The notes under the pieces: model-generated
What the model was told of the DNA's origin: nothing
Seen by the model: the letters and a program-made list of their open reading frames with translations, nothing else
The model's database searches: none
Made by a program: the position numbers and the translations under genes
DNA from: Paenibacillus terricola
GTDB lineage: Bacteria > Bacillota > Bacilli > Paenibacillales > Paenibacillaceae
DNA: 64,000 bases
Assembly: GCF_014779765.1 (NCBI RefSeq)
Contig: NZ_JACXZA010000006.1
Coordinates: 434,001 to 498,000 of the forward strand
Direction: 5' to 3'
Part shown: one piece after another, positions 39,942 through 55,084 of the stretch
Layout of the letters: each line of letters starts with the position of its first letter
Numbering within the stretch: the stretch's first letter is position 1

Positions 39942-40967
39942 TTATCCCTTCTGCCCTGCCTGATAGTCCAACGCAGCCATAATAATCGTTACGGACTCTG
40001 CCCGACTCGCGTTGCTCTTCGGTGAGAAATTGTTGCCGCCGGTACCTTTAATAATGCCCGCATTCACAGCGGCCACTATCGAAGGCTGCGCCCATGCAGG
40101 AATCTGGTCCGTATCAGCGAAGGTTGGCTTCCCTTGCGCATTCATCTGCAGATCGAGAACGCGTACGAGAATAGCCGTCATCTCGGTTCTCGTAATAAGT
40201 TGGTTCGGACGGAAGGTTCCATCCGCATAGCCGGTCACAATACCCGCTCCTGCTGCTTCAGCAATTGACGTCTTCGCCCATTGCGGCAGCATCGCCGCGT
40301 CAGCGAATTCAGGCGTTATTCCTGTTGCCGATTGTAAGGTAAAGGCATGTGTAATCATCGTCGTAAACTCAGCTCGGGTCACCTTATTGCCAGGACGGAA
40401 CGTTCCATCCGGGTAACCACTCGTTATGCCTAGTGCTGCGGCACGTTCAATTGCCTCTTTAGCCCAATGTCCCTTAATGTCTGAGAAAATCAACACATTG
40501 GGATCATCTTTAACCGCTGCCGTTACTTTAGGCTCTAACGTAACCATGTCCAGCTTAGAATCAACGAGCTTAATATTGCTTAGCTTAATAGCTGTTGCCC
40601 CGGCACCTATACGTTTAAAGGTTATCGCGGACAATTCCACGTTACCCTTCTCGCCGCTTGTTTCACCTATCTTCGTATGCGCAATTCGGATCGTATTGGC
40701 GCTAAGGATAGGCTGCACCGAGAAGCCTGCAATCGAAGTTTCCGCCTTGCTGAATGCTAGGATATTCTCGTCATAGGACAATTCCAAATCATAAGCGTAC
40801 ATATCCATAAGCCCATGACCTATAATAGACAGCTTAACATCCTTGTCCGTAAACTTAAGCTTTAACTCGAATGTGGCATTCGTGTCTTGAGCCATAACAG
40901 TCCCCACAGGCACTCCCATGACAAGGATGAAGATCGACAATAGCATTATTAATCTGCGTTTCAACAT
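39942..40967 (-). CDS. Cohesin-SLH surface anchor protein (copy A)
   Basis: A 341-residue secreted protein. A signal peptide (about 1-26, VGTVMAQ) is followed by a cohesin-like beta-sandwich (about 28-165: YAYDLELSYDENILAFSKAE, IRIAHTKIGE, ELSAITFKRIG) and three SLH domains (about 172-341: FSDIKGHWAKEAIERAAALG, TRAEFTTMI, ITRTEMTAIL, ASRAESVTII). It should bind a dockerin-bearing partner and fix it to the wall; this is an inference from domain content. It lies directly behind the 2212-residue dockerin-like enzyme, and a matching pair lies at 55084-47998. The ATG at 40967 is 9 nt after AAGGG; ATG 40976 abuts that site. The SLH part has a 138-nt identical tract with copy B. Confidence 0.82.
   Translation of the reverse strand: MLKRRLIMLLSIFILVMGVPVGTVMAQDTNATFELKLKFTDKDVKLSIIGHGLMDMYAYDLELSYDENILAFSKAETSIAGFSVQPILSANTIRIAHTKIGETSGEKGNVELSAITFKRIGAGATAIKLSNIKLVDSKLDMVTLEPKVTAAVKDDPNVLIFSDIKGHWAKEAIERAAALGITSGYPDGTFRPGNKVTRAEFTTMITHAFTLQSATGITPEFADAAMLPQWAKTSIAEAAGAGIVTGYADGTFRPNQLITRTEMTAILVRVLDLQMNAQGKPTFADTDQIPAWAQPSIVAAVNAGIIKGTGGNNFSPKSNASRAESVTIIMAALDYQAGQKG
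39958..40095 (-). repeat. 138-nt tract identical to 48014-48151 (third SLH domain)
   Basis: This part of the third SLH domain is base-for-base the same as in the paralogue. The cohesin halves of the two genes are clearly diverged, which suggests gene conversion or strong conservation of the anchor half. Confidence 0.9.
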
Positions 40968-40984
40968 GCGAATCATCCCTTCAT

Positions 40985-41017
40985 TAAAAGGAGGAGGAAG
41001 GCGCCGCAGCACCTTCC
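40985..41017 (-). terminator. Hairpin between the 2212-residue enzyme and its anchor gene
   Basis: GGAAGGTGC-TGCG-GCGCCTTCC (one G-U pair) is followed by TCCTCCTTTT on the minus strand. The tail overlaps the leader of the anchor gene, so read-through at reduced level is likely. Confidence 0.6.
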
Positions 41018-41043
41018 CGCTTCATCCCACTATCAACGATTGT

Positions 41044-44000
41044 TTATTGCTCTAACCAATTTCCAACAATCATACGTGCTACGGCTGCCAATTCGAGAAT
41101 CGTAATCTCATGATTATCGAACAGGTCTGCTTTCTCTACGATATCCCAACCCGGTTGATCTTTCTTAACGCCGTAGTGCTTGGCGATGATCGACAGATCT
41201 TGAATCGTAATGGATGTCGCTCCAGGTACAAGCGTCACAATCGTTGAAGCGAATGCCGATACAGCATTATTCAATGTTACGACCGCTGCATCAACCGTCG
41301 ACTGTGAAGCTCCGCTGTTCTTCACGTTAATCGCTGCTGTAATGGCCGCTTGCAGGTTCGTGATTGCAGCTTCTGGATATTGACCGATTTTGTTGCCCGC
41401 CGTTGCCTTAGCAGCTTTAGCTTGAGCCGCTGCAATCGCTTGATTCAATGCTCTTACATCAGCCGTAGGTGTAGGAATTACGCTCGCTTTGAATGTGCTT
41501 ACGGCTGTCGCTAATGCCGACACAGCTGCGTCCACATCAGCTTGCGTTACTGTGCTGCTGTCACGAACAATAGCTGCATCGTCAATCGCAGCTTGAAGTG
41601 CAGCCTTCGCGCCTGCTGGATATTGGCCCGGAGCTGATCCTTCCACTGCAACGCTCAATGCTTGCTCAGCATCCGTTATTGCTGTATTCAATTCTGCTTT
41701 ATTGATATGGATAACTGAACTATTGAAGGCTGTTACTGCTTCTTCGAGTGCAGCAGATGCTTGAACAACGTCATCTTGTGTTGCTGCTCCGTCTTGCGCC
41801 ACTGCCGATGCACGATCAATTGCAGCTTGTAAGATGGCGATGGAACCAATCGGATATTGACCTTCTTGATTTCCTTCAACTGCCGCATCAGCAATGGCTT
41901 GAGCCGCTGCGATGGAAGCAATCAATGCCGTCTTATCTACCTGTACAACTTGTATGCCTGCCACAGCCAGAGAGGTGTCGAGTAAGGAATACCGACTTTC
42001 GTCACCAACCATTTCCTGTTTGGTTATCGCGACATTAGTAGTTCCAGCAGCTGCATCTGCCTTGGCTTTGCCGTGAAGAACGAATAATTCGCCGTCACCT
42101 GTCAAGAATGTTCCGGTGAGTCCCATAATAATAAGGATTTCACCCGTTTCCGGTTTCACCGCTGTCTCAAGAACTTGGAGTCCAGCCCGCGAAGGCGTAA
42201 TTGAATCTGCATCTAAGACGTTAACCCCATTATCTAGTGAAGTCGCGAACGCAAGCATAGCTGGGTCGTACTGCAACTCCACGCTCAGCATATTGAAATT
42301 ATGCGCCAATCCCGTTACGCCAACTGAAAGATTAATAGGTTGACCCACGAACACGGACGATGAAGGACCGCTAATGCTGGCCATTGGATTCTGAATCTGC
42401 CCTTCCGGAATAACGACTTCCTTATCCGAGCTGGCATTCAGAGAACTGGTTGCCATATACCGGACCCCATACGCACCGGCGCTGAGGCCTGTAACCTCCG
42501 TTCCTGTAATGGCCGTATAGGCTTCCTTGCCTGCTTTCCTATACTCCATTGCCGTTGTAACACCAACGAGTTTACCATCATTACCGCCCAATACGGTCGG
42601 CGCAACCCCTGCTGGCGTTGTTGGTGCCGGCTGATTCTGCTTGGCTGCCGGTTGAAACACTTCCCACTCCCATAGGCCAACGCCATTACCATCCCGGGCT
42701 TTCTTCGTCATCGTAACACGCAGCGATTTGACCTCCAGAGCCGGGTCGAATGCGAAGAGATTGGATGAACCGACAGGAGTCGTAAGAGCTATGATGCCTG
42801 TGGTAACCGTCCCTGCCGTTACCCATGCATTCGTCGTGCTATTCTTCGGAATGTAAGCGAACGTGTACTTAGTAGGCGCTAATATACCGCCATTATCCGT
42901 CCACTGCATCAGATTGGAGCTCGAGATGGTTGCGCCCTGCGGCCAATCATATTGCACCCATTCCTCCGAGCTTGTATTGCCCCACGAACCCCAATGCGGG
43001 TTGCTTGTCAATGATTTCAATCCATCATTCACCGCAGGAAGACTCTCCCACGATGACGTGTAGCTGGCCGAGAGACTCGCTGCGAATGCCATATTGTTAT
43101 CGCGTGGAGTCAGCAATCGCAGATCTGTCAGCAGCTTGTTAATGGCTTGGGCAACATCCTCTTCTGTCGCTTCCTTGTTACTCATCACAGCGGAAGCGCC
43201 CGCCTTCGCATCAGTAATCGGCGCAAGACCTTGATCGACGAAGTTCGCAGCTTTAAGAGAGTTGGCGAAGTTAAGAACCTGTGCCAGCTGCGACTTGTCT
43301 GTCGCTCCCGTATAGCCATTGACCTTCCATTCCAGAATGCCGGTTCCCGCTGTGATCGGCTTCATGTCGATACGAGCGCCTGTAATGTATGCGGGCTCAA
43401 AGGTAGTCGTGTTGTATTTATTCAACGCGTTGCCAAGTCCCGCTACTGCTCTTGGCGTGTACCAATTGCCATCCGCGTCACGAAGCTGAAGCTTCATATC
43501 CGTAGGCTGGAAATTCCCCGAACCGTCTCGGAACACATAGACATCCATCGAGGAGGCAAGGAATGCTTCATCCCATTGATACATCACCCATGATGGATCT
43601 CCTTCTCTGCCCCAGTTGTGCCATGCGCTGTTGGAAGCACCTTTGGTCGGTGAGAAATCCGATGAGCTCTTAGGATCGAAGCCGTTATTCATCGCTTCAG
43701 GATATCCGTCACCACCAGAGTAACTAGCAGAAGGCCGTGCAGTCAGCGCGTTGTTGGAAGGCTGCGATTTCACGACATATACCGTGACGCGTACCTTCAC
43801 TTCGCTGTCTACGATTGTGCCCTCGACTACGAATTCGCCTGTCTTCGCATAGCTGGCTGGATCAACAGCATTCCACGTAATTGGACTTGGTTTATATCCA
43901 TCATTAGTCAGGATATCCGTCTGTGTCGGTAGTACCGGAGCTGCGTTCAGTTGAGTCACAACGCTGAATGCCTTGTATGCGCCATCGGTGTCTCGTGCGA

Positions 44001-47000
44001 TATTAATCGTTACATCCTTGCTGGACGTCTTGCCTTCATCGGTCGCTGTAAAGGTAAACACATAGATGCCTGCCTTGCTTATGCGGGCATATGCATTTGT
44101 TTTGTCCCCGTTCACAAAAGTAACATCCGCTGCGCCATCCGGTTTCTGCTTCACCGTCCATCCGTACGTCCATACCGGTTCATATACCGCGCTGTACACC
44201 GGATCCGCTGTCGCCATACCGGCTAATTTGAGAATACTGTTATTCGCAGCATCCAAGGCCGCTGTCACTTCGCCGATTACCGGGGGCTGTTTGTCCGGTG
44301 CAGCGACCAATGTGAAGGTCAGCTCGTTAGAACCACTCACTTGCCCGTCATTGGCGGTAAGTCTGACCGTATAAGAGCCTCCCTTAGTACCGTTGGCCCG
44401 CGTAACGGTTGACTTCGGATTGGTGAAGCTCAGCTGGCCGCCTGCCGGCGTGCTTACAACCTCCCATTGGTAGGTCAACGTGCCATTCGGTGCGCCGTCA
44501 TCGGTCACATTTCCGCTCATCTCAAACGGAATCATCGCTTGTGGGCTCGACGTCACCATCTCTGCACGAACTTGAGGAGCTTCGTTTGCACCCGTAACTG
44601 CCTTCTCAATTGTCAATTCAGCAGTTGGCGCGCTGTTCATCTGGAACATCGCCGTACCTTTATTGTTCTGAACATACAACTGTCCGGCATCTTGATCATC
44701 TAATTTAATCGTATAATAGCCATTCTTCAAGCCTGCTCCATCGAATGTAATCTTGGAAGAATGTTCGCTCTTCGCAAGATTCGAGAGCTGCAGCTTAAAC
44801 GAATTGCCGTCTTTTTGAATGTCCGCATTCTCGATTTTGTCGCTTTCCGAGACGAGGTAGATTTGTTCATCGAGTAAGTTGATACGCTTGCCGAAGCCGT
44901 CCTTTGGTGTGATATGATAAGCGCCGTCTTCTTCAGTGACCAGAGCGCCATATCCGAACAGTCCAAACACCGGGTCGGTAACAATATCTGAACTGATACG
45001 CAACAGCGAGCCATAAAGTCCTTCCTCTGATTCGCCGGAGAAGTCCTGCCAGCCATTGTTCATAACGCGAGTGCCGCCGTCGTTGACGTTCTTGGTACCT
45101 GTTCCGCCCTTCTGAGCATTATATCGCCAAGAGATGCCGCCTACAGACTGTGACGAGATTTGCCCCATATTGATCGCGTTGAAGTTCGAAATCTTGGCCG
45201 CATAGTTGCGTTGTTGTGCGGTAGCCGTCTGTTCCGCCGTTCTTCCGTCATTCTCATAGCGGAGCCAGTCATCCATGATAGACCCTGCCAAGGAAGCGGT
45301 ATATTGAAAGTTCCACCAGCCTTCGCCGGCGCGGAATACAGGTACGGAATAATAGTACCAGGTAGGCTGAATGCCCCGCATAGCACGAGTCTTCAAGTCA
45401 GCCATTCCCATGCTTGTAAGAGCTGCGGTCGCCCGCGCATCTTCAGGGTAGTAGGTGCGCAGCGCTTTGGCTGCGGCATATGCCCCTTCTTCGCCCGTAT
45501 TGTCATATTCGAATTCGGACCCGTAAGGATAAGACGCGTTGGTTATGTTCCGGCCTTTGGTTTGGGCGAACTTCTTCTTCAGATTCTCATACTCCGTCAG
45601 CATTCCCTCTTCTTTCAGCGCCTCGATCATATCGGGTATCTGCTGTTCGCCATAGAATCCGACAGCTCCGCTGGAGACGCGGTTATAGTAAATGCCGTAG
45701 GCCTTCTCCAGATAGTATTGCGGCGTCTCGCGATACTTCAACAGATTAGGATAAGCCTTCTGGATCCGATACATGTTGAAATAGCCGGTCGATTCCATCT
45801 GTTCGGAGAATGTCCGTACATAAGGGGCTGATGAATTCGTGTAAACGCCTGAATCTTTGAGGTAGTTCGCGACCGTAAAGGTCTTCTGCGTATCTTTCAT
45901 ATACGTTTCCCACATGAAGTCGATCAGGTAGTTCTCAATGGATCGAATTTCATTCGGATCTGGATCAAGATAATTCTTCATCGTCATGAAGTTAATATTA
46001 TCGTGGCTCCAGTCATCTCCCCAATGGCTCGTCGTCATGTCCATTCCGGTTGTCAAATACCAGTCACGGTAGATGCCGTAGGTAGCGCTGTTCGGGTCCT
46101 TATCCTGTGTTTTGTCTACCATAAATTCAGAGTGAGCTTGCGATGTTTGATCGAGCTCGGCAAGAATATTGAATTCGAACTGCGTAAACTTATTCGCTTG
46201 TTCAGGATCGGCTTTCAGCTTATAGTCCACGCGAACGCTGTTATTGCCGATATTGCCGAACTTGAGCGAATAGATATGATGCTGTTCACCGTTAACAACC
46301 TTGGTTTCCACGAATTGTACGGATTCTGAATATCCCGGATTTCCGTCGGGAAGTCCGCGGCCGGCACGGGAATTGTTGACCATCTGAGCCCTCGTCGAGC
46401 CAGACTTGATCGTCGGAATATGTGCGGCATCGAATGGATCATTTTCGTTAACAGACTGAATATCTATCGACTGAACGTCTATAAGGCTGTCGTCGTAATG
46501 CAGATCCAGCAAGACGGGCATATTGATCGCAGCTTGGAAGCCAGGCAGCGCAACGGCATCGATCATGCCTGATTTGTACAGGGTGGAGCGAAGGTTAGCC
46601 TCACGGTCTTCCATCGATGTAGAAGCATTATTGGGACTTTGAGCGTTGACTTGCGGAGAGTTGTCGCCTGCACGTACAGCCGAGAACTTGAACTTGTAGG
46701 TTTTCTCCTGATTAGGAGCCAGAACCAAGCTGGTCGCATCGGTAAAATATCCACGTCCGGTTTTCTGAATGTCCTTGGAATGGATATAGAGCACATTCAG
46801 CCCTGGGAACCAGCCGCCGCTGTCGCCAACCCAGTTGGAGTACAGACTTCCGTTGCGCAGTTCGCCTGTGTCGCCCAACCAGTAATCCACATATTCAATG
46901 CGTGCGCCGCTTTCGGGCACTGGGGCGAACATCATGAAATTTCCTTCGCCGCTCGTGCGGATCGCATAGGAATAACCGCTGTCGGCACCGGCGAAATTAT

Positions 47001-47682
47001 GCACCGTCACCCGGTTGTCGTAGGTATCGGATTGATTGGCATACTTGTTATTCCAAGGCATCGGCAAGCCGATATCGCCGAACTCCATATATTTGCTGCT
47101 TTTGTTCTTGACCGTGATTTCCCACAGCATCGAACCGTCTGCGGTATCCGTATTGAATACAGACTTCACGTCAAAGCCTTTCATTGCTCGAGCCGTTGTG
47201 GAGTCCAAATTCTGTCCAATGAAGTTGACTTCCACTTTCTTGCCGTCTGATGAAGCTGTCTTCGAGAAGTAGGGGTTGGTCGCATTAATGGTCGTGTACT
47301 TGGTTGATCCACCAGCGGCCAATGTTTTGTTCGTATCCACTTCTACGAATCCAGTTCTGTCGTTAGGGAATTGAGCGCTGTCACCGGTGCGATAAGAGAA
47401 CAGCATTTCGCCCATCCATTGGTGCTGAACGTCGTTCTGTGGCGATGTATTGTTAGGCAAAACAAAATTGATCGGCTTGCCGCCTTTGTTCGTCGGGTTA
47501 TTCTGAATATATAGTTCTTCAATCTGCCCTAAATCACCGATCTTGGCAGAAAGACTAGCGTTGGAGATACTATTCGCTTCTGCGGCTGCCGAAGGCACCG
47601 CATTAATCCCGAAGGGCAGCACTTGAAGAACCATTACAAATGCAGTAGCCAGTGACGTCAACTTTGTGGTAGTCGTTTTCAT
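41044..47682 (-). CDS. Giant secreted DUF5695-like protein with CBM32-like, cohesin, FIVAR and degenerate dockerin modules
   Basis: A 2212-residue protein with signal peptide (1-34). Residues 40-1015 resemble DUF5695 proteins of Paenibacillus: an N-terminal beta domain and an alpha/alpha-toroid-like part (EYDNTGEEGAYAAAKALRTY, GEGWWNFQYTASLAGSIMDD). A glycoside hydrolase is likely but its activity is unknown. Next come Ig/PKD-like modules (about 1030-1305), two F5/8C or CBM32-like modules (1308-1458, 1528-1678) flanking a FIVAR-like helix bundle, and a cohesin (about 1767-1915: LSVELQYDPAMLAF). Three FIVAR repeats (1917-2148) and a dockerin-like end (2151-2210) follow. In the dockerin the first calcium loop is deleted and the second reads DLFDNHEITILE, so calcium ligands are poorly kept. 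AGGAGG precedes the ATG; a cre lies at 47815. Confidence 0.78.
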   Translation of the reverse strand: MKTTTTKLTSLATAFVMVLQVLPFGINAVPSAAAEANSISNASLSAKIGDLGQIEELYIQNNPTNKGGKPINFVLPNNTSPQNDVQHQWMGEMLFSYRTGDSAQFPNDRTGFVEVDTNKTLAAGGSTKYTTINATNPYFSKTASSDGKKVEVNFIGQNLDSTTARAMKGFDVKSVFNTDTADGSMLWEITVKNKSSKYMEFGDIGLPMPWNNKYANQSDTYDNRVTVHNFAGADSGYSYAIRTSGEGNFMMFAPVPESGARIEYVDYWLGDTGELRNGSLYSNWVGDSGGWFPGLNVLYIHSKDIQKTGRGYFTDATSLVLAPNQEKTYKFKFSAVRAGDNSPQVNAQSPNNASTSMEDREANLRSTLYKSGMIDAVALPGFQAAINMPVLLDLHYDDSLIDVQSIDIQSVNENDPFDAAHIPTIKSGSTRAQMVNNSRAGRGLPDGNPGYSESVQFVETKVVNGEQHHIYSLKFGNIGNNSVRVDYKLKADPEQANKFTQFEFNILAELDQTSQAHSEFMVDKTQDKDPNSATYGIYRDWYLTTGMDMTTSHWGDDWSHDNINFMTMKNYLDPDPNEIRSIENYLIDFMWETYMKDTQKTFTVANYLKDSGVYTNSSAPYVRTFSEQMESTGYFNMYRIQKAYPNLLKYRETPQYYLEKAYGIYYNRVSSGAVGFYGEQQIPDMIEALKEEGMLTEYENLKKKFAQTKGRNITNASYPYGSEFEYDNTGEEGAYAAAKALRTYYPEDARATAALTSMGMADLKTRAMRGIQPTWYYYSVPVFRAGEGWWNFQYTASLAGSIMDDWLRYENDGRTAEQTATAQQRNYAAKISNFNAINMGQISSQSVGGISWRYNAQKGGTGTKNVNDGGTRVMNNGWQDFSGESEEGLYGSLLRISSDIVTDPVFGLFGYGALVTEEDGAYHITPKDGFGKRINLLDEQIYLVSESDKIENADIQKDGNSFKLQLSNLAKSEHSSKITFDGAGLKNGYYTIKLDDQDAGQLYVQNNKGTAMFQMNSAPTAELTIEKAVTGANEAPQVRAEMVTSSPQAMIPFEMSGNVTDDGAPNGTLTYQWEVVSTPAGGQLSFTNPKSTVTRANGTKGGSYTVRLTANDGQVSGSNELTFTLVAAPDKQPPVIGEVTAALDAANNSILKLAGMATADPVYSAVYEPVWTYGWTVKQKPDGAADVTFVNGDKTNAYARISKAGIYVFTFTATDEGKTSSKDVTINIARDTDGAYKAFSVVTQLNAAPVLPTQTDILTNDGYKPSPITWNAVDPASYAKTGEFVVEGTIVDSEVKVRVTVYVVKSQPSNNALTARPSASYSGGDGYPEAMNNGFDPKSSSDFSPTKGASNSAWHNWGREGDPSWVMYQWDEAFLASSMDVYVFRDGSGNFQPTDMKLQLRDADGNWYTPRAVAGLGNALNKYNTTTFEPAYITGARIDMKPITAGTGILEWKVNGYTGATDKSQLAQVLNFANSLKAANFVDQGLAPITDAKAGASAVMSNKEATEEDVAQAINKLLTDLRLLTPRDNNMAFAASLSASYTSSWESLPAVNDGLKSLTSNPHWGSWGNTSSEEWVQYDWPQGATISSSNLMQWTDNGGILAPTKYTFAYIPKNSTTNAWVTAGTVTTGIIALTTPVGSSNLFAFDPALEVKSLRVTMTKKARDGNGVGLWEWEVFQPAAKQNQPAPTTPAGVAPTVLGGNDGKLVGVTTAMEYRKAGKEAYTAITGTEVTGLSAGAYGVRYMATSSLNASSDKEVVIPEGQIQNPMASISGPSSSVFVGQPINLSVGVTGLAHNFNMLSVELQYDPAMLAFATSLDNGVNVLDADSITPSRAGLQVLETAVKPETGEILIIMGLTGTFLTGDGELFVLHGKAKADAAAGTTNVAITKQEMVGDESRYSLLDTSLAVAGIQVVQVDKTALIASIAAAQAIADAAVEGNQEGQYPIGSIAILQAAIDRASAVAQDGAATQDDVVQASAALEEAVTAFNSSVIHINKAELNTAITDAEQALSVAVEGSAPGQYPAGAKAALQAAIDDAAIVRDSSTVTQADVDAAVSALATAVSTFKASVIPTPTADVRALNQAIAAAQAKAAKATAGNKIGQYPEAAITNLQAAITAAINVKNSGASQSTVDAAVVTLNNAVSAFASTIVTLVPGATSITIQDLSIIAKHYGVKKDQPGWDIVEKADLFDNHEITILELAAVARMIVGNWLEQ

Positions 47683-47814: not shown

Positions 47815-47828
47815 TGAAAGCGCTTTAT
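47815..47828. promoter_or_regulatory. cre box (CcpA) upstream of the 2212-residue enzyme
   Basis: TGAAAGCGCTTTAT matches the cre consensus apart from the last base pair and lies 133 bp ahead of the start. With the terminator at 47932 it accounts for most of the recognisable content of the 315-nt gap 47683-47997. Confidence 0.65.
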
Positions 47829-47931
47829 CGAAATTATAAAGGATACACCCAAGGATAAATATCAGCATATTCAACCTGTTCTTTAGGATTTTCAACCTTA
47901 TCAGAATTGTCCATGCGGGTTGATTAGTAAG

Positions 47932-47961
47932 AAAAAGGGAGGTCAAGAAGCACCTCCCAGA
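47932..47961 (-). terminator. Intrinsic terminator after cohesin-SLH copy B
   Basis: GGGAGGTGCTTCTTGACCTCCC forms a 7-8 bp stem on the minus strand followed by TTTTTCTT, 37 nt after the stop. Confidence 0.8.
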
Positions 47962-47997
47962 TTCTACCCATTTTCGATTTTTCTACAATAAAACAGA

Positions 47998-49068
47998 CTA
48001 GCCTTTCTCGCCCGCCTGATAGTCCAACGCAGCCATAATAATCGTTACGGACTCTGCCCGACTCGCGTTGCTCTTCGGTGAGAAATTGTTGCCGCCGGTA
48101 CCTTTAATAATGCCCGCATTCACAGCGGCCACTATCGAAGGCTGCGCCCATACCGCAATCTGGTTCGTATCTGCAAAGGTTGGCTTCGCTTGCGCATTCA
48201 ATTGCAGATCGAGCACGCGTACGAGAATAGCCGTCATCTCCGTCCTCGTAATGAGTTGGTTCGGGCGGAAGGTTCCATCCGCATAGCCGGTAACAATACC
48301 TGCTGCGGCTGCTTCAGCTATCGCCGTCTTCGCCCATTGCGGCAGCTTCGCCGCGTCAGCGAATTCAGGCGTTATGCCTGTTGCCGACTTCAATGTAAAT
48401 GCACGAGTGATCATCGTCGTAAATTCGGCGCGCGTTACCTTATTGCTAGGACGGAACGTTCCGTCCGGATATCCACTCGTAATGCCGAGCGCTGCGGCGC
48501 GCTCGATTGCAGCTTTTGCCCAATGCCCATTCAGATCGGAGAAATTGATTGGTTTTACTTCTTTAATAGGGGTAATCGCAATGCTGGCAGACACTTTAGG
48601 CGCTGCTGTCTCCGTCTTCAGATCGCTTGTAACGAGCTTGACGTTGTCCAGCGTGATGCTCGCATCGCCAGTCGATTTGCCAGAAGCGATAAACGTAATG
48701 GTTGCCAGTTCTACCGTTCCGCTTAGACCGGCCGTTGTGCCAATATTGGTATGGGCAAACATGAGTTTGCCGTCCGTCGTATCCTTCGGTGGAATGGAGA
48801 AGCCGGATATTGCACTTACAGTCTTCACATAGCTCAGCAGCTTATTATCAAATGACAGTTGTAATTCATAACCGTATACATCCGTTAGATTCGTGCCAAT
48901 AACTTTCACGCTCACCTCCTGCCCTTCAGCAGATGTCTGCGAGCTCGCTTCCAGCGTGAAAGAAGTTTGTGCTGCCAACGCGGATAATGGATTCATCAAC
49001 GTCAATAGGAGTAGAAGTACGATTCCGATCAAACCTGCTTTGCCGTATCTATTATGGATGCTGAACAT
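47998..49068 (-). CDS. Cohesin-SLH surface anchor protein (copy B)
   Basis: A 356-residue secreted protein with a long signal peptide (about 1-33, LSALAAQ). A cohesin-like module (about 35-175: VYGYELQLSFDNKLLSYVKT, LMFAHTNIGTTAG, ELATITFIASG) and three SLH domains (about 187-356: FSDLNGHWAKAAIERAAALG, TRAEFTTMITRAF, ITRTEMTAIL, ASRAESVTII) follow. The architecture is that of a minimal anchoring scaffoldin with one cohesin. It is the next gene after the dockerin-bearing PL11 enzyme (128 nt), with a hairpin between them. GGGGGG lies about 10 nt before the ATG. The SLH half is nearly identical to copy A; the cohesin half has diverged, which suggests different dockerin partners. Confidence 0.83.
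   Translation of the reverse strand: MFSIHNRYGKAGLIGIVLLLLLTLMNPLSALAAQTSFTLEASSQTSAEGQEVSVKVIGTNLTDVYGYELQLSFDNKLLSYVKTVSAISGFSIPPKDTTDGKLMFAHTNIGTTAGLSGTVELATITFIASGKSTGDASITLDNVKLVTSDLKTETAAPKVSASIAITPIKEVKPINFSDLNGHWAKAAIERAAALGITSGYPDGTFRPSNKVTRAEFTTMITRAFTLKSATGITPEFADAAKLPQWAKTAIAEAAAAGIVTGYADGTFRPNQLITRTEMTAILVRVLDLQLNAQAKPTFADTNQIAVWAQPSIVAAVNAGIIKGTGGNNFSPKSNASRAESVTIIMAALDYQAGEKG
48014..48151 (-). repeat. 138-nt tract identical to 39958-40095
   Basis: This is the partner of the tract in anchor copy A, encoding part of the third SLH domain. Confidence 0.9.
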
Positions 49069-49102
49069 GCAGCTGGACCCCCCTTCCTCTTGTCCGATTT
49101 GA

Positions 49103-49131
49103 GAAGGAGGAGGCTTAATAGCCCCCTCCTA
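49103..49131 (-). terminator. Hairpin between PL11 enzyme and anchor copy B
   Basis: AGGAGGGGGCT-ATTA-AGCCTCCTCCT pairs with one mismatch on the minus strand. Only a weak T-rich tail (TCTC) follows, so this is more likely a leaky or processing hairpin than a full stop. Confidence 0.45.
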
Positions 49132-49195
49132 AACACTACAGATTACACTTACCGCCTTACTAGAATCTCAACCTGCTACATTCCCTTCGCGAACC

Positions 49196-52100
49196 CTATT
49201 TCTTCGACAAAATGCCTTGCGCCACAACAACCAGATCTTCCAGTCCAATGACGTTGTCGCCATTAAAGTCATAATGCTTGTAAACAGCGTTCCACTGCGG
49301 ATCTTCGGACGACTTGCCATATGCTGCGGCAACGATGCCGAGGTCGCCGATCGTAAATGCGCCGTCTCCATTCGCATCGCCAGGTTGTGCAACAATGACC
49401 GAAGCTGCAAAGGCATTCATCGCTGCTGTCAATTGCTCAACAGCCTGTGCAACTTGCGCCGGCGTAGCCGATTGGTTTGCTGCCACCGCCGAAGCTGTCG
49501 CAATCGCGGTACCGAATGCATCCTTCACTTGCTGCGAGTACTGACCAGGCTTAACGCCGACTTGCGCCGAATCGTATTGCGCTTGCGCGCTGGCGAGCAG
49601 CGACGCGAGCGCTGTTTTGTCCGCTTCAACCCAGATCTGAACCGCTGCGGTAGCTGCACCAACTGACAATTCCGCACCTGTGCCCGTAGCTGCCGTGTTC
49701 GTAATCGAGATCGCCGTCGATGCCGTCTCTCCCAGTGCCTTGGCCTTCCAGTTCAGCTTGAAGAGCGTCGTATCCTTATTGATGGCATTGCCTTCCCCTG
49801 CAGATGCTGCAATAATATGAACGCTGCCTGGCGTGTCTGTGCCCACATCTACCAGCTGGAAGCCTTCTACCAGGGATTGCGCTCCGAGGAACTCGAGTTT
49901 GTCCGCATCATAGCTCACGATAATGTCCTGTGCGTAGATATCCTCAGGGACGTTATGAATCTTGTAATCCATCGAGAACTCGGAACCGCCTACTACCGTA
50001 TCTGGGCTGCCGGATAGAGAGGCATGGAATTGTTCGTCTACTCCGTCCACTGTAACAAGTGCAGATAACGGAATGTTTAATCCCTTAACCAACCTTGCTA
50101 CCATCTCGGATACTTTGATCGCGCCGTTCATCTGTAAGTGCGTGTTGTCTTCCGTTGTGTTGACCCACAAGAAAATATCCTTGGTGCCTTCTGTACCAAG
50201 CTCTTGGAAGTACTCCCAACTCGCCTGGTTCAGGTCCACTAACAACGTTCCTGTTTCTTGTGCGGTTTCTTTCATCGCCTGCACGTATTCCGGGAAGCTC
50301 TTATTCAATGTCTCACCCGTGAAGTCACGTCTGTTCACCGGCGTAACGAGCACTGGCGTTGCACCCCTCTGAACCGCACCATTGATGTAATCCTTGAGAT
50401 ATACCTTGAATTGCTCCGGTGTCAGATAACGCTCTGGACGAACCGGCGTGGAATCGTTATGAGACCATTGCATGAACAGATAGTCGCCTTCATGAATGTC
50501 CAGCAGGAGATCATTGAGGTAACCGCCCACCATGAAGGTTTTGCTGCTCAATCCGCCTACCGCACGGTTATCGATACTGATCTGATTCAGGTCAAAATAA
50601 TTGCCCAGCGTCTCGCCCCATCCCGCTTGCGGACGATAGCTTTCTGCATAATTGGCAACCGTGGAATCGCTCGCCAAATAAATAACCGGTTTGTCGCCTT
50701 TGCCGTTATCCGGCAGACGTTCAATCGTCATTGCATTGATCTTCGGCGTGTTGCCTGCGAAGTCGAAGTTGAATACACCGTCGATCAGCGCGACGTCATA
50801 CGTGAATTGCTTGAATTCGCCTTTGGCTACCGTTGTAACCGGCAGCTTCGGCATTTGCTCCATCGTCACGCCGCCATTCGTCGATTCCTGCGAATCGCCG
50901 ATCGTCATCGTAACGCGGTAATTCGCTGGTTTCATCTCAACCAGGAAGGACGTACCGTTGACGCGGGTGAAGTCTTCCGTAAGCGCATCGCCCGTGTTAC
51001 GGTTCTCGTCTACGACAAGATTCGTATCCGCGAAGCCATATCCGTTACCCTCCACGTACGCATGGTTGCTATCGACCTTCAGATAGCCTTGGGCTGCACT
51101 GCCGGAGCCAAAGTCGAATTGATATTTGCTAATATCGCCTGTAGGCTCACGGGTTAAGGAATCCCTAGCGACCGTAAGCATATTCAGGGCATGATCCACC
51201 TGAGCTTGCGTTGCTGGCGTTCCGATAATCGCTTCAGCAGCTGCCACAGCTTTGTTCAATACGGCAACAGACTGTTCTGTGTAGCCCGACAGATCCATCG
51301 CTTTGATCTCTGCATGCAGCGCAATCAATGCGGCTTGATCAGCGGCCGCCGGCGGAAGCTCTTTGCCTTCGATTCGTACATTATCGATCATGGTCGTCCA
51401 GCTCAGCGTACCGCCGCCGCCTTTTCTCGTGCCAAGGAAACGAATCGCTCTTACGTTATCCGCATATTTCGTTCCCGCACTCATCGGAATATCCTTGATC
51501 GTCTGCTTAAGGCTCGGGTTCGCCAGGCTCGTCAATGTCAGATCGATCAGCTTATCGGCGAAGTTAATGGTGGCATCCACATTGACCCACTGATTTCTCT
51601 CGATCGTCGTTAATTTGCCGCCTTCCGGTATCGTTGTGGTGCCAGTACCGTAGTCAGGCGCATATTGGCCTGCATAATAACCAATGGACTTGTTGGTGCT
51701 CGTATTCGTGTATAACGTCAGAATCAAATTCTCGTTAGCATCTTGCAGCGACAGATGCCCCTCAGAAGGACTCGCCGTTACATTTCCTGAATGCCAATCG
51801 AAGTTCACATGCACGATGTCTCCGTTCACCGCATCGAACAAACGGAACGTCTTGGCGCGGTTACCGGATCCGCCGCCGGTAACGGACAGCACCTTGCTGC
51901 CATTTTGCTCCACCACAGAGGCTCCTAACGTCCCTGCTATACCCGTAGAGTTAACCATCGCATATTGGACGGCATTCGGATCGCCCTCGAAGTCTTCGAA
52001 GTAGCTTTGCGTTTCCGGCTCTGGTTCTGGTTCGGCAATGTCCGGGTCTATAACGAACGGCGAGATGCTAAGACCCATGCCCTTCACAGCACCAGCCACC

Positions 52101-55084
52101 AATCCCGCGATGACTTTCGCGCCATAAGTGCTGAAATGCGTATTATCGCCTACCCCGCTTGGATATTTCGGATATTCGCCAGGATTCGCATACAGGAATA
52201 TTTTCTCTGTAGCAGCCAAGCCCACCTGATTGTACTTCGCAATGCTTAACTGGCTTAGATCAATCAGCTGCACGCCAAGCTCTTGCGCCACCTCTTTGGC
52301 TGCTTGGACGTATTCCGGGAAGCTCACGTTAAACTCTTGGGTAACCGTATTGAAGTCTCTGCGCCCTACCGGCGTGAGCAGCACTGGCGTTGCGCCGCGC
52401 TGACGGGCACCGTTTACATACCGCGTCAGATACATTTTGTAATCAGCCGGGGATGCATAACGGTCTGGAATTCCGACGCTTGCATCGTTATGACCGAAGG
52501 AGATGAAGAAGAAATCCCCAGGCCTGATCTGACGCAGAATCGTATCGAGACGACCGTCTACGAGGAACGACTTACTGCTTCTGCCGCCGATCGAGTGATT
52601 ATCCACAACTACGCCATTCGAGAAATAACGGCCGAACTCTTGTCCCCAGCCTTCTTGCGGTGCTTGTGGAGCACTGTAAGACTGCATGGTCGAATCGCCA
52701 GCCATATAGATCGTCGTTGCAGCGCCTGCTGTTTGTGCCGGATACTTCTCAATGATGATTTCCTGCACATGAATCGCACTGCCTGTGAAGTTGAATTCCA
52801 ACTGACCGTCTACCAGCGCAATGTCATAAGAATAGGTGAGCGGCTCGCCTTGCTTCACATTGGTCACAGCCAACTTCTGAACGTATTCGGACTTCACGCC
52901 AACGTTCGAATCCTGTGTATCGTCACCAAGCTTAAGCGTTACCTTATAGTTCGCATTCGGCAGATCGACCGCGAACTTCGCATTTTCCGGCAGGGTAACT
53001 TGATTGGTCCCTACTGTAATGCCGCTTGTTGATTCGAAGCCATAGCCGTGATCAGCTGTGTACAGGGTATCCTGCACAGATGTTGTATTAGCCTCGGACG
53101 CCGTACCGAAGTCAAAATGATAGATCGAATCGAGCGCCTGCGGTCCACCGACGATTCTTACATCGGCTTTCGGGAATTCGGTCGCTTCCGACCCGATATA
53201 GAATCCCGTATGCGGAGGCTGATTGTAGCCTGCATTCTGCCAAGCTACGCCTAAGCGGTATACAGGGTCCTGCATCAAGGTTGTAATCCGATACGAAGTA
53301 GGCATCGTTGTGCTGTACAATCTGAATTCCGTGCTGTCTTCACTGCGCAGCAGAAGCTCTTCCCGCCAGTCGCCAAGAATGTCCGCTTGGAGCGAAGGCG
53401 TGCCCTTAGTCGAGTTGTTGGTCAATGTGCCTGGTGCACGGAAGATCTCGTTCAACTTCTTATTCGTGTAATCCCAATCATAGATAACCGGGATCCCTTT
53501 GCCTGTGCTGTTATCCCAGATATGGTCGAACAGCTCGCTCTGAAGATCGCCATCCCATTGAATCGAGAAGTCGGCGCTCTTAGGCGTCTCATCCACGCCA
53601 TAGATAACTTCGCCATTGGCCGCATGCGTACTCGTTACGGGCACCATCATGCCATCGACGATCGTCGTTGCCCATGATTCGTAGCCTGGATAATTCGGGT
53701 CAATGTCCGCCGACATGCCGCGCCCCGTATCGATGCCGGTGTACTCTCCCCACAGGATTTCGCCGGTTGCAGCATTGTGCATCTCCAGACCGTATTCAGC
53801 ATTGGTATGCTCATGCACGCCAACAACCTGATATCCGTCACGGGACGGATCCAGCTTGCCTGCATGCATCGCGTCGCCATGGCCAAGCCTCGTGCTGTAC
53901 AATACGCTTCCATCATCGTCAATCGCAAGCGCGCCGTACATGATCTCGTCCTTGCCATCCCCATCGACATCCAGAACGCTTAATCCGTGATTCCCTTGTC
54001 CCTCATATTGTTTGCCAGCCACATTGGAATCGAACGTCCAGCGTTTCACCAGTTGACCTCCAACATAGTCGTAAGCAGCCAGTACCGTTCGAGTATAGTA
54101 GCCGCGAGCCATAATAACGCTTGGTTTGACGCCGTCCAGATAAGCAACGGCCGCCAAGAAGCGGTCCACGCGGTTGCCGTACGTATCGCCCCAATCGCCT
54201 ACATTGCCTCTTGGAGGATCGTAATCAACCGTGGATACGGCTGCCCCTGTTACACCATCGAACAACGTCAGAAACTCCGGCCCAGACAGAATATAGCCGC
54301 CATCGTTGCGATAGTCCTTGGTGCCATCGCCGATGACCGTGCCTTTGCCATCCACCGTTCCATCGGCGGTCTTCACTACGAGTTCCGCCTTACCGTTGCC
54401 GTCCAGGTCGTACACCATGAATGGATTGTAATGCGCGCCAGCCCGGATGTTCTTGCCTAGATCGATCCGCCACAGCTTGCTGCCGTCCAGTTTCATGGCA
54501 TCGAGATAGACGTTGCCGGTATAGCCTGCAAACGAGTTATCCTTACTATTGCTCGGATCCCATTTGACAATAATTTCATACTCGCCGTCACCATCCAGAT
54601 CGGCTACGGAAGCATCATTGGCGTTGTAAGTATAGCTGCCGCCGTCCTTCGTTCTGCCGTCTGCCGGTTTATCCAGCGGGATAGGCAAATAATTGTTATG
54701 CCACACCGAGACAGCCTCCGGCTGCATCTCTTCTTTGCCAGCGATAATCGTGGAAATCTGGTACTCTGAGCTATCGGCACCTGACGTATCCACATAGTTG
54801 GTCACATCGCTGATTGGCTGCGCGTTCACTTTATAGCCGTTCTTATATACATTGAAAGCGATTTCATTTGGATCCGTATTTAAGTATCGCCAGCTTAGAA
54901 ATACGCCTTTATCAACCAGAATCGCAACTAAGCCGCGGTTAAGATATTCTGCCTGACGCAGAGGCGCATCGTCAGATGCCTCCGCTCGCCCTGGCGTTGG
55001 AACGACGAGTAGTGAAACGACCAGCATAAATGACATCACAAATGCCACAATCGATTTGCTTCGGGATACCGCTTTTGTACCCAA
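49196..55084 (-). CDS. Trifunctional RG-I enzyme: PL11 lyase, two acetylesterase domains, cohesin, FIVAR, dockerin
   Basis: A secreted protein of about 1962 residues (numbering below counts from the GTG at 55093; the better-spaced start is TTG 55084). After a signal peptide comes the PL11 lyase (45-650: LNRGLVAILVDKGVFLSWRY, ADLDGDGEYEIIVKWDPSNS, GNHGLSVLDVDGDG). An FDFG galactose-binding-like module (655-785) precedes esterase 1 (790-1010: AGDSTM, SIGGRSSKSF, FGHNDAS, GDNTHFS). A concanavalin-like module (1030-1245) and a FIVAR (1250-1315) lead to a second FDFG module (1320-1460) and esterase 2 (1470-1675: ASDSTV, AVGGLSSKTF, WSHNDS, EDNTHLQ). Then come a cohesin (1690-1822), a FIVAR (1825-1900) and a complete dockerin (1905-1962: GDANGDGAFTIGDL and YDFNGDNVIGLEDL). 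It would deacetylate and cleave RG-I while held in a protein complex. Confidence 0.92.
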   Translation of the reverse strand: MGTKAVSRSKSIVAFVMSFMLVVSLLVVPTPGRAEASDDAPLRQAEYLNRGLVAILVDKGVFLSWRYLNTDPNEIAFNVYKNGYKVNAQPISDVTNYVDTSGADSSEYQISTIIAGKEEMQPEAVSVWHNNYLPIPLDKPADGRTKDGGSYTYNANDASVADLDGDGEYEIIVKWDPSNSKDNSFAGYTGNVYLDAMKLDGSKLWRIDLGKNIRAGAHYNPFMVYDLDGNGKAELVVKTADGTVDGKGTVIGDGTKDYRNDGGYILSGPEFLTLFDGVTGAAVSTVDYDPPRGNVGDWGDTYGNRVDRFLAAVAYLDGVKPSVIMARGYYTRTVLAAYDYVGGQLVKRWTFDSNVAGKQYEGQGNHGLSVLDVDGDGKDEIMYGALAIDDDGSVLYSTRLGHGDAMHAGKLDPSRDGYQVVGVHEHTNAEYGLEMHNAATGEILWGEYTGIDTGRGMSADIDPNYPGYESWATTIVDGMMVPVTSTHAANGEVIYGVDETPKSADFSIQWDGDLQSELFDHIWDNSTGKGIPVIYDWDYTNKKLNEIFRAPGTLTNNSTKGTPSLQADILGDWREELLLRSEDSTEFRLYSTTMPTSYRITTLMQDPVYRLGVAWQNAGYNQPPHTGFYIGSEATEFPKADVRIVGGPQALDSIYHFDFGTASEANTTSVQDTLYTADHGYGFESTSGITVGTNQVTLPENAKFAVDLPNANYKVTLKLGDDTQDSNVGVKSEYVQKLAVTNVKQGEPLTYSYDIALVDGQLEFNFTGSAIHVQEIIIEKYPAQTAGAATTIYMAGDSTMQSYSAPQAPQEGWGQEFGRYFSNGVVVDNHSIGGRSSKSFLVDGRLDTILRQIRPGDFFFISFGHNDASVGIPDRYASPADYKMYLTRYVNGARQRGATPVLLTPVGRRDFNTVTQEFNVSFPEYVQAAKEVAQELGVQLIDLSQLSIAKYNQVGLAATEKIFLYANPGEYPKYPSGVGDNTHFSTYGAKVIAGLVAGAVKGMGLSISPFVIDPDIAEPEPEPETQSYFEDFEGDPNAVQYAMVNSTGIAGTLGASVVEQNGSKVLSVTGGGSGNRAKTFRLFDAVNGDIVHVNFDWHSGNVTASPSEGHLSLQDANENLILTLYTNTSTNKSIGYYAGQYAPDYGTGTTTIPEGGKLTTIERNQWVNVDATINFADKLIDLTLTSLANPSLKQTIKDIPMSAGTKYADNVRAIRFLGTRKGGGGTLSWTTMIDNVRIEGKELPPAAADQAALIALHAEIKAMDLSGYTEQSVAVLNKAVAAAEAIIGTPATQAQVDHALNMLTVARDSLTREPTGDISKYQFDFGSGSAAQGYLKVDSNHAYVEGNGYGFADTNLVVDENRNTGDALTEDFTRVNGTSFLVEMKPANYRVTMTIGDSQESTNGGVTMEQMPKLPVTTVAKGEFKQFTYDVALIDGVFNFDFAGNTPKINAMTIERLPDNGKGDKPVIYLASDSTVANYAESYRPQAGWGETLGNYFDLNQISIDNRAVGGLSSKTFMVGGYLNDLLLDIHEGDYLFMQWSHNDSTPVRPERYLTPEQFKVYLKDYINGAVQRGATPVLVTPVNRRDFTGETLNKSFPEYVQAMKETAQETGTLLVDLNQASWEYFQELGTEGTKDIFLWVNTTEDNTHLQMNGAIKVSEMVARLVKGLNIPLSALVTVDGVDEQFHASLSGSPDTVVGGSEFSMDYKIHNVPEDIYAQDIIVSYDADKLEFLGAQSLVEGFQLVDVGTDTPGSVHIIAASAGEGNAINKDTTLFKLNWKAKALGETASTAISITNTAATGTGAELSVGAATAAVQIWVEADKTALASLLASAQAQYDSAQVGVKPGQYSQQVKDAFGTAIATASAVAANQSATPAQVAQAVEQLTAAMNAFAASVIVAQPGDANGDGAFTIGDLGIVAAAYGKSSEDPQWNAVYKHYDFNGDNVIGLEDLVVVAQGILSKK
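54853..54866. promoter_or_regulatory. Intragenic cre consensus in the PL11 gene
   Basis: TGAAAGCGATTTCA is a full consensus match about 220 bp inside the coding region. Intragenic cre roadblocks are known in Bacillus, but the bases also encode the PL11 peptide EIAFN, so chance is possible. Confidence 0.4.

What the first reader, a model, noticed from the sequence alone, without database searches (positions are those of the whole stretch)
39942..55084. Two enzyme-plus-anchor cassettes: a candidate cellulosome-like pectinolytic complex outside Clostridia
Seen: the 1965-residue PL11/esterase protein and the 2212-residue DUF5695-like protein both end in cohesin, FIVAR and dockerin-type modules. 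Each is followed at once by a small secreted protein made only of one cohesin-like module and three SLH domains. Known: cohesin-dockerin pairs assemble clostridial cellulosomes. In Clostridium perfringens, cohesin-like X82 and FIVAR-dockerin modules on secreted glycosidases bind each other very tightly. SLH domains bind wall polymer. Inference: the dockerin of an enzyme docks onto the cohesin of its adjacent anchor, while the enzyme's own cohesin recruits further dockerin proteins, giving a branched, wall-held RG-I machine in a Paenibacillus-type cell. I know of no described system with this exact cassette.
Basis: partly seen in the sequence, partly recalled or inferred. Interest (0 to 1): 0.88.

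Follow-up and report, generated by a model that had tools for sequence, protein, structure and literature searches.

The report
Wall-anchored self-scaffolding enzyme complex, Paenibacillaceae
Soil bacteria of the Paenibacillus family very often encode, side by side, a large sugar-cutting enzyme that ends in both halves of a molecular plug-and-socket and a small cell-wall anchor that carries one socket, which suggests that the enzymes hook onto the cell and onto each other without a separate scaffold protein.

Summary
Two enzymes (PL11/GDSL, 1965 aa; DUF5695, 2212 aa) end in cohesin, FIVAR and dockerin modules, and each is followed by a 356-aa cohesin-plus-three-SLH protein. A third cassette lies just outside the window.

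The pairing recurs across the family. In 59 of 69 anchor-centred loci (one per genome) a same-strand immediate neighbour carries cohesin and dockerin, against 50 of 789 other genes. Anchors have one cohesin and three SLH (74 of 74). Enzymes carry a cohesin and a C-terminal dockerin spaced by 0, 1, 2 or 3 FIVAR lengths (242 of 242 single-module tails). Anchor and enzyme cohesins form two groups. Two natural enzyme-anchor fusions and several Coh-Doc adaptors without an evident enzyme exist. Enzyme tails are homologous to the C. perfringens X82/FIVAR-dockerin pair.

Most likely mechanism: an enzyme's dockerin plugs into the anchor, and its own cohesin takes the next dockerin, giving wall-hung enzyme chains. 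Binding is not shown, and co-variation tests were no better than a control. Minor et al. (2024) had noted this kind of parts list in one species, P. guangzhouensis; the gene pairing, breadth, cohesin split, spacing, calcium-ligand-less dockerin class and fusions are what I add.

The parts
49196..55093 (-). Enzyme E1, 1965 aa: secretion signal by eye, PL11 rhamnogalacturonan lyase, two GDSL esterase modules, AGA-YXIM galactose-binding modules, then cohesin - FIVAR - dockerin
49628..50035 (-). Enzyme-type (X82-like) cohesin of E1
   Evidence: Pfam 7.2e-12; first row of profile A4, which matches NagJ cohesin-like module 2jh2/2ozn; AF2 model: ten strands
49409..49621 (-). FIVAR spacer of E1 between cohesin and dockerin (one copy)
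   Evidence: AF2 three-helix bundle
49208..49384 (-). Dockerin of E1, class I, both calcium loops canonical
   Evidence: AF2 helices
47998..49068 (-). Anchor A1, 356 aa: signal peptide by eye, one cohesin, three SLH
48574..48972 (-). Anchor-type cohesin of A1
   Evidence: Pfam 7.2e-8; anchor group in tree; hhalign prob 98.4 to enzyme cohesins as a profile
48034..48546 (-). Three SLH domains of A1
   Evidence: Pfam 4.6e-42, 3 stretches; similar to solved S-layer protein Sap SLH 1.1e-16; limits approximate
41044..47682 (-). Enzyme E2, 2212 aa: DUF5695, PKD-like, Big_4, F5/8 type C, then cohesin - FIVAR x3 - dockerin
41944..42390 (-). Enzyme-type cohesin of E2 (class II subgroup)
   Evidence: genome search E 3e-7, tree
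41248..41940 (-). Three FIVAR spacers of E2
   Evidence: Pfam 9.4e-11, 3 stretches; limits approximate
41065..41229 (-). Dockerin of E2, class II: calcium-loop residues lost
39942..41012 (-). Anchor A2, 356 aa: signal peptide by eye, one cohesin, three SLH
40506..40880 (-). Anchor-type cohesin of A2
   Evidence: Pfam 0.017 alone; profile match 7.0e-39 to anchor cohesins, of which it is a member row; anchor group in tree
55557..59277 (-). Upstream ABC importer genes: two permeases (308, 321 aa) and a 573-aa protein, perhaps the solute-binding protein by its place (Pfam shows only a weak LRR_9 hit)
4756..25499 (-). Rest of the pectin locus: GH88, PL4 (RhgB_N), arabinofuranosidase C-terminal domain, GDSL esterase, solute-binding proteins, two-component system (10 of the ORFs scanned)

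Best explanation
It is a wall-anchored, scaffoldin-free multi-enzyme system. Step 1 (shown by homology): each large secreted enzyme carries at its C-terminus an X82-type cohesin, 0-3 FIVAR spacers and a dockerin. Step 2 (shown): the neighbouring gene makes a small protein with one cohesin of a separate type and three SLH domains. Step 3 (established for SLH domains in general; inferred here): the SLH domains bind pyruvylated wall polymer. Step 4 (inferred): the dockerin of an enzyme plugs into the anchor's cohesin and holds the enzyme on the wall next to the ABC importer encoded in the same locus. Step 5 (inferred): the enzyme's own cohesin stays free for the dockerin of another enzyme or of a Coh-Doc adaptor, as X82 and FIVAR-dockerin do between C. 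perfringens enzymes, so that enzymes form short wall-hung chains in which they are their own scaffold. In this genome it serves rhamnogalacturonan-I breakdown; in relatives other glycans.
For: Pairing: 59 of 69 anchor-centred loci have a same-strand immediate neighbour with Coh+Doc, against 50 of 789 other genes (Fisher 5.5e-50, loci not independent). Parts rule in the first 80 loci: 74 of 74 anchors have 1 cohesin + 3 SLH; 100 of 100 Coh-Doc proteins have 1 cohesin before the dockerin (99 one dockerin, 1 two), and in the 97 with a stop in the locus the dockerin ends 0-9 residues from the C-terminus. Dockerin-first check: 29 of 30 loci have a cohesin in the same frame. Spacing in 242 of 242 single-Coh/single-Doc tails falls in four bins. 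Two cohesin groups: 116 anchors plus one fusion against 148 enzyme cohesins, SH-aLRT 100. Homology of tails to the C. perfringens pair: 2ozn_A 1.9e-13, 2jnk/2ozn 5e-9; binding among C. perfringens enzymes reported (PMC12997984 section 22). Natural fusions with enzyme-type Coh, Doc, anchor-type Coh and three SLH in two genera, L131 and L294. Adaptors of signal, Coh and Doc only, and some with extra Coh or Doc. Own genome: 4 dockerins, 3 anchor cohesins. Mirror-tree: partial correlation anchor cohesin-dockerin given SLH 0.40, SLH-dockerin given anchor cohesin 0.09. AF2 of E1's tail: mean pLDDT 94.0, pTM 0.69.
Against: No binding was shown. Anchor cohesin and dockerin do not clearly co-vary more than SLH and dockerin: nearest-neighbour class prediction 97/99 for anchor cohesin and 94/99 for SLH, about equal once close anchors are removed (83 v 82, 71 v 74, 59 v 60 of 99); within-genome permutation gives z 5.1 for anchor cohesin and 5.4 for SLH; strong couplings are no more frequent than in the SLH control (0.0042 v 0.0047-0.0073), though the single top pair is higher (4.3 v 3.3 sd, larger block). 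Partial correlation of anchor cohesin and dockerin given enzyme cohesin is -0.06. 9 of 69 anchors lack such a neighbour and in 1 no anchor was called. Two of five named E2 orthologs (P. planticolens, P. chondroitinus) have no anchor beside them; 37 of 98 Coh-Doc proteins in the named loci have one. Class II dockerins, E2's included, lack the calcium ligands. The anchor cohesin has no significant PDB hit by sequence (0.13). Only 2 of 6 genomes of the own genus have cohesin matches. The SLH partner on C12 is not supported as having a cohesin.
Confidence: 0.66

Rival explanations
1. Anchoring only: the enzyme's dockerin binds the anchor, and the enzyme's own cohesin closes on its own dockerin before anchoring or is a leftover. 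There are no chains.
For: Cohesin and dockerin of one chain are matched: the nearest enzyme cohesin predicts the dockerin class in 99 of 99 cases and the distances correlate most strongly (r 0.85), as expected also if they bind each other in cis. In 6 of the 19 searched genomes with five or fewer dockerins the numbers of dockerins and anchor-type matches are equal.
Against: Coh-Doc adaptors without an evident enzyme, and adaptors with two Coh or two Doc, make little sense if Coh and Doc only close on each other. Linkers of 0 to 3 FIVAR lengths make one fixed cis geometry unlikely. Some genomes have 16-42 dockerins with one to four anchor-type matches (G310, G291, G293, G313). Class matching in one chain is also what co-inheritance gives.
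Confidence: 0.2
2. Free enzyme clusters: enzyme cohesins and dockerins pair among themselves as in C. perfringens, while the anchor's divergent cohesin binds something else (a glycan or another surface protein), and adjacency reflects co-expression only.
For: Anchor cohesins are a separate group with a long branch and show no clear co-variation with dockerins beyond linkage.
Against: Two genomes of different genera fuse the anchor modules to a Coh-Doc protein. The anchor has nothing but cohesin and SLH, so its only evident cargo is what the cohesin binds. Pairing persists when the enzyme changes: immediate neighbours of anchors whose cluster representatives were scanned include PL11, GH3, GH10, GH30-like, GH51-type, GH78, GH85 and an MGH1-like enzyme.
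Confidence: 0.11
3. The cohesin-like modules are unrelated beta-sandwiches (linker or carbohydrate-binding modules) and no cohesin-dockerin assembly exists.
For: Weak Pfam scores for some copies (0.017 for A2).
Against: Family-level profiles are significant (184 of 394 genomes; probability 98.4), PDB homology is to a module listed under the same entry as a FIVAR-dockerin, and dockerins co-occur with cohesins in 29 of 30 dockerin-first loci.
Confidence: 0.03

Closest known systems
Paenibacillus guangzhouensis 'monovalent adaptors' and SLH-anchoring scaffoldins (Minor et al. 2024, PMC11557425; abstract and sections 15 and 19 read)
   Same: Proteins with a single dockerin-cohesin pair, in many instances with an N-terminal GH, plus SLH proteins with cohesin; proposed there to give an enzyme-rich surface
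   Different: Described in one species from InterProScan counts; no gene pairing, cohesin types, FIVAR spacing, calcium-less dockerins, fusions or family-wide spread in the sections read
Clostridium perfringens X82 cohesin / FIVAR-dockerin glycosidase complexes (2ozn, 2jh2, 2jnk; described in PMC12997984, passages and section 22 read)
   Same: Homologous cohesin, FIVAR and dockerin modules borne directly by enzymes, no scaffoldin
   Different: There cohesin and dockerin mostly sit on different enzymes (one GH31 has both, by the passages read); here nearly every dockerin protein examined has both, and there is a dedicated SLH anchor with a separate cohesin type
Clostridial cellulosome with SLH anchoring scaffoldins (general knowledge)
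   Same: Dockerin enzymes, cohesins, SLH wall attachment
   Different: No multi-cohesin protein found in this genome; one cohesin per enzyme and per anchor; substrate set pectin here and many other glycans in relatives; aerobic lifestyle of Paenibacillaceae is recalled, not tested
P. curdlanolyticus B-6 multienzyme complex with S1 (PMC6823336, passages read)
   Same: Multi-enzyme complex in a Paenibacillus, SLH protein
   Different: S1 and Xyn11A have no cohesin or dockerin
Limousia mucinolysome (PMC12997984, passages and section 22 read)
   Same: Coh-Doc assembly for a non-cellulosic glycan with a wall-anchored cohesin protein
   Different: Scaffoldins without GH domains, some with several cohesins; sortase anchor

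Membership tests
Cohesin-dockerin multi-enzyme complexes in the broad sense | Enzymes with dockerins and partner proteins with cohesins, secreted | tested here: met
   signal peptides judged by eye only
Cohesin-dockerin multi-enzyme complexes in the broad sense | Measured cohesin-dockerin binding | not testable with these tools
   single-chain AF2 only; output held no contacts
Cellulosome (strict) | Scaffoldin with several cohesins | tested here: not met
   own genome: six cohesin matches in six separate frames; first 80 loci: 1 per CD and CS protein. In relatives three Coh-Doc proteins with two cohesins and two dockerins exist (L151, L226, L251)
Cellulosome (strict) | Cellulose-directed enzymes and CBM3 | tested here: inconclusive
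   this locus is RG-I directed and no CBM3 hit was listed in the four cassette proteins; the rest of the genome was not searched for CBM3
C. perfringens X82/FIVAR-Doc type | X82-type cohesin on the enzyme | tested here: met
   2jh2 1.3e-13, 2ozn_A 1.9e-13
C. perfringens X82/FIVAR-Doc type | FIVAR followed by dockerin | tested here: met
   E1 and E2; 2jnk/2ozn 5e-9; absent in 81 of 242 tails with the short linker
Dockerin type I | Two calcium loops with conserved D/N ligands | tested here: inconclusive
   class I (97 sequences): D 100, N 97, D 100, D 100 percent in loop 1 and D 100, N/D 92, D/N 100, D 100 in loop 2 - met for E1; class II (55 by my test, two of them atypical: C12's enzyme and the L131 fusion): lost, E2 included
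SLH wall anchor | Three SLH domains | tested here: met
SLH wall anchor | Pyruvyl transferase for the wall polymer in the genome | tested here: inconclusive
   two PS_pyruv_trans genes, but this family also rings in 8 of 14 control genomes, E. coli among them, so CsaB itself is not shown

The most novel reading that the evidence does not exclude
Paenibacillaceae and much of their order use a scaffold-free 'daisy chain': every enzyme is both plug and socket, a dedicated one-socket SLH anchor starts each chain, Coh-Doc proteins without an enzyme extend or branch it, FIVAR modules set the spacing in whole units, and a second, calcium-ligand-less dockerin class with its own enzyme-cohesin subgroup runs in parallel, so that one cell can build two docking systems, one calcium-dependent and one not.
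Probability: 0.45. Interest if true: 0.85.

Novelty: new variant of a known kind. Interest (0 to 1): 0.68.

Why it matters
Cellulosomes are taught as anaerobic, scaffoldin-based machines. If this reading holds, one of the commonest groups of soil and plant-associated bacteria builds surface enzyme complexes on a simpler plan, in which the enzyme is its own scaffold, for pectin, hemicellulose, host-type and other glycans. It would give a small, modular Coh-Doc toolkit with built-in spacers and perhaps calcium-free pairs, and it ties surface enzymes to the neighbouring importer in a Gram-positive glycan locus. It also makes the single-species note of Minor et al. into a testable family-wide rule.

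Tried and rejected
Attenuation between enzyme and anchor: a hairpin seen by eye after E1 is not general. Terminator-like sites lie in 5 of 83 enzyme-to-anchor gaps and 25 of 83 stretches after the anchor; this fits a two-gene operon, and the idea of stoichiometry control was dropped.

Cognate co-evolution: mirror-tree, nearest-neighbour, within-genome permutation and mutual-information tests show that enzyme and anchor genes are inherited together, but no clear signal specific to anchor cohesin and dockerin beyond the SLH control; only the partial correlation given SLH (0.40) leans that way.

Strict link of dockerin class with FIVAR number: sharp in the first set (class I 0-1, class II 1-3), looser in the larger set (class I 79/71/11/1, class II 2/7/60/11 for 0/1/2/3).

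Fourth cassette on C12: the enzyme tail matches (1.4e-20), but the N-terminal part of the SLH protein is not supported as a cohesin (hhalign probability 5.4).

Rows set aside before counts: in the tree, cohesin matches under 100 profile columns and proteins with a cohesin but neither SLH nor dockerin, identical tails and proteins with more than one Coh or Doc, pairs with identical anchors (133 to 117), one poor gene call (L190). The 69 anchors were taken from the listed rows, which is a capped list. Loci L059-L178 were picked by cohesin matches, so their co-occurrence counts are biased; one search is the dockerin-first check, on genomes already known to have cohesin matches. Only 10, 8 and 6 candidates per genome were scored, so match counts per genome there are lower bounds. 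Genes were called by a simple longest-ORF script.
Full report
WHAT IS THERE. The window is G000:C14:434001-498000 of a 6.78-Mb genome. All four genes of the finding exist as described, on the minus strand, in the order E1 (PL11-GDSL-GDSL-Coh-FIVAR-Doc, 1965 aa), A1 (Coh-SLH3, 356 aa), E2 (DUF5695-...-Coh-FIVAR3-Doc, 2212 aa), A2 (Coh-SLH3, 356 aa). Gaps are 127 bases between E1 and A1 and 31 between E2 and A2 (from the ORF coordinates). They sit in a rhamnogalacturonan-I locus: PL4, GH88, an arabinofuranosidase C-terminal domain, GDSL esterases, GH106, ABC permeases, AraC-type and two-component regulators. Just outside the window lies a third cassette, A3 then E3 (another PL11 with Coh-FIVAR-Doc; L014). 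On contig C12 a metallophosphoesterase with Coh-like and Doc modules is followed by an SLH protein (L016); its enzyme tail matches the tail profile (1.4e-20), but a cohesin in its SLH partner is not supported. A dockerin profile finds four dockerins in this genome (53 candidates scored, E up to 0.001) and an anchor-cohesin profile three anchors (E up to 1e-10). Of the six genomes of the genus only two have cohesin matches.

A FAMILY-WIDE PATTERN. A profile of six own cohesins matches 184 of 394 genomes of the family, in 15 of 19 genera. A profile of 46 Coh-(FIVAR)-Doc tails matches 158 of 296 genomes drawn from the order, in 36 of 48 genera, and 37 of 398 drawn from the class (family and order members included), several of these only by their dockerin part. 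From the listed rows I took the best short-frame match of each of 69 genomes and fetched up to 20 kb around it, plus 11 loci centred on long frames. Of the 69 anchor-centred loci, 59 have a same-strand immediate neighbour with Coh+Doc (45 enzyme upstream, 6 downstream, 8 both), 9 have none and in 1 no anchor was called; of 789 other genes in these loci 50 have such a neighbour (Fisher 5.5e-50; genomes are related, so this is not a strict probability). With 43 more loci (40 around further anchor-like matches of the same genomes, and three own loci) the counts are 150 Coh+Doc, 116 Coh+SLH, 15 SLH only, 8 Coh only, 4 Doc only, 1 all three, of 1636 ORFs. Because these loci were picked by cohesin, I ran a dockerin-only profile over 32 genomes chosen among those with cohesin matches. 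It found 280 dockerins (sum of the table), and in 29 of the 30 loci returned (one per genome as far as the listing shows) the same frame holds a cohesin, 17 of 30 with an anchor within 1.5 kb. In 74 loci with named organisms, 37 of 98 Coh-Doc proteins have an adjacent same-strand anchor.

ANATOMY. In the first 80 loci, 74 of 74 anchors have one cohesin and three SLH; 100 of 100 Coh-Doc proteins have one cohesin N-terminal of the dockerin (one has two dockerins), and in the 97 with a stop codon inside the locus the dockerin ends 0-9 residues from the C-terminus. In 242 non-redundant tails with one Coh and one Doc the gap falls in four bins (5-30, 80-115, 155-185, 235-265 residues; 81, 78, 71, 12 tails) and nowhere else. 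The bins match the FIVAR number in E1 (one) and E2 (three), the two checked by Pfam. Dockerins come in two classes. Class I keeps the calcium ligands (97 sequences, E1 and E3 among them). Class II (55 by my test, E2 among them; C12's enzyme and the L131 fusion are atypical members) has lost them while keeping the core Asp-Leu, Trp and Gly. Enzyme cohesins of class II proteins form one subgroup (51 of 53).

TWO KINDS OF COHESIN. In a tree of 265 cohesins, 116 anchors plus the anchor-side cohesin of one fusion stand on one side and 148 enzyme cohesins on the other (SH-aLRT 100, branch 2.7, quick method, 119 columns, midpoint root; the program warns of long branches and few columns). Profile comparison still joins the two kinds over 110 columns (probability 98.4).

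FUSIONS AND ADAPTORS. L131 (1629 aa) is PL8 + CBM96 + enzyme-type cohesin + dockerin + anchor-type cohesin + three SLH. L294, from another genus, has the same docking modules in the same order. In both, the gene next to it upstream is a large protein with a dockerin and no cohesin hit. Among 271 Coh+Doc proteins, 9 have the cohesin within the first 160 residues. I read eight, by eye and size, as lacking a catalytic module (not scanned with Pfam): L121, L132, L297, L298 (signal, Coh, Doc), L235 (Coh-FIVAR-Doc), L226 (two Coh, two Doc, fn3-like), L220 (Coh, two Doc, fn3-like) and L076 (Coh, two Doc); I dropped L190 as a poor gene call. Two more with two Coh and two Doc are L151 (425 aa) and L251 (677 aa). 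Some loci hold one anchor and four or five Coh-containing genes in a row (for example L132, L133 and L297).

CARGO. Of 40 enzyme clusters in 147 Coh-Doc proteins I scanned representatives of 31 (7, 8, 10 and 6 proteins). They include PL11, PL8, GH2, GH3, GH10, GH20, GH30-like, GH31, sialidase, GH43, GH51-type, GH78, GH85, GH95, GH101, GH127, CE2_N and several without a catalytic hit. The docking plan is therefore general and pectin is this genome's use.

HOW IT MAY WORK. The enzyme tails are homologous to the X82 cohesin and FIVAR-dockerin of C. perfringens, best PDB hits 2jh2 (1.3e-13) and 2ozn_A (1.9e-13), with 2jnk/2ozn (5e-9) for the dockerin side. That 2ozn is the complex of the two is recalled; the hit table lists both molecules under 2ozn. 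PMC12997984 (section 22 read) reports that NagJ, NanJ and GH20 cohesins bind NagH, GH95 and GH2 dockerins, and that two other cohesins showed no binding. So the enzyme's own cohesin is most likely a dockerin receptor. The anchor, made only of a cohesin and three SLH domains and next to, or fused with, a Coh-Doc protein, is most simply read as the wall socket. With both sockets working, enzymes and adaptors make chains. AlphaFold2 of E1's natural tail (281 residues, 46 rows) gave mean pLDDT 94.0 and pTM 0.69, with ten strands, a three-helix bundle and three dockerin helices. This supports the module folds and says nothing firm about docking, because no contacts were returned.

RESULTS AGAINST. 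The co-variation tests gave no clear anchor-cohesin/dockerin signal beyond common inheritance. Nine of 69 anchors stand without such a neighbour. Of five named E2 orthologs, three have the anchor next door (Paenibacillus lupini, P. castaneae, Cohnella fermenti) and two do not (P. planticolens, P. chondroitinus). In genomes with many dockerins the number of anchor-type matches stays small (42 dockerins and 4 matches, 3 of them in long frames, in G293), which fits chains or shared anchors alike. No binding evidence could be obtained.

WHAT IS KNOWN. Minor et al. 2024 (PMC11557425; abstract and sections 15 and 19 read) found in Paenibacillus guangzhouensis 35 cohesin proteins, 28 of them single dockerin-cohesin pairs, many with a GH, and five SLH anchoring scaffoldins, and suggested an enzyme-rich surface distinct from cellulosomes. 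That is the same parts list in one species. My searches listed no paper whose title or shown abstract treats the gene pairing, the two cohesin types or the calcium-less class. The library lacks most subscription journals, the lists were capped, and I opened only five papers (PMC6823336, PMC11557425, PMC12997984, PMC5132251, PMC12484212; passages or sections). The C. perfringens primary paper is not held.

VERDICT. Observation confirmed; interpretation partly supported; a widespread variant of cohesin-dockerin assembly, with binding still to be shown.

Noticed in passing
window 33226-37785(-): A 1519-aa GH10 enzyme carries three SLH domains itself, so covalent and plug-in anchoring coexist in one locus.
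   Followed up: no
L016:4672-8775(-), G000:C12: Metallophosphoesterase with Coh-like and Doc modules followed by a 572-aa SLH protein; possible non-glycan member of the system, partner cohesin not supported.
   Followed up: partly
L131:9385-14274 and L294:9268-14163: Natural enzyme-anchor fusions with four kinds of docking or anchoring module in one chain; the neighbouring upstream gene has a dockerin but no cohesin hit.
   Followed up: yes
L226:1327-2910, L220:1737-2912, L076:10793-11719, L151:8370-9647, L251:979-3012: Proteins with several Coh and/or Doc modules, possible branch points.
   Followed up: partly
L300 (G313:C1:180001-199900): Anchor-type cohesin and SLH parts lie in two separate short frames beside a 2093-aa Coh-Doc protein; possibly a broken anchor gene.
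   Followed up: no
L190 and L191 (P. planticolens, P. chondroitinus): E2-type Coh-Doc enzyme with no adjacent anchor but another Coh-Doc gene near it.
   Followed up: no
G495, G492 (order search): First-look candidate counts of 175 and 126 for the tail profile suggest genomes with very many Coh-Doc enzymes (only 8 scored each).
   Followed up: no
L217, L221, L224, L228, L259: FIVAR-region matches to the E2 tail in Bacteroidales and Bacteroidota MAGs.
   Followed up: no
window 51155-51310(-): A second FIVAR copy lies inside E1, upstream of the C-terminal cohesin.
   Followed up: no
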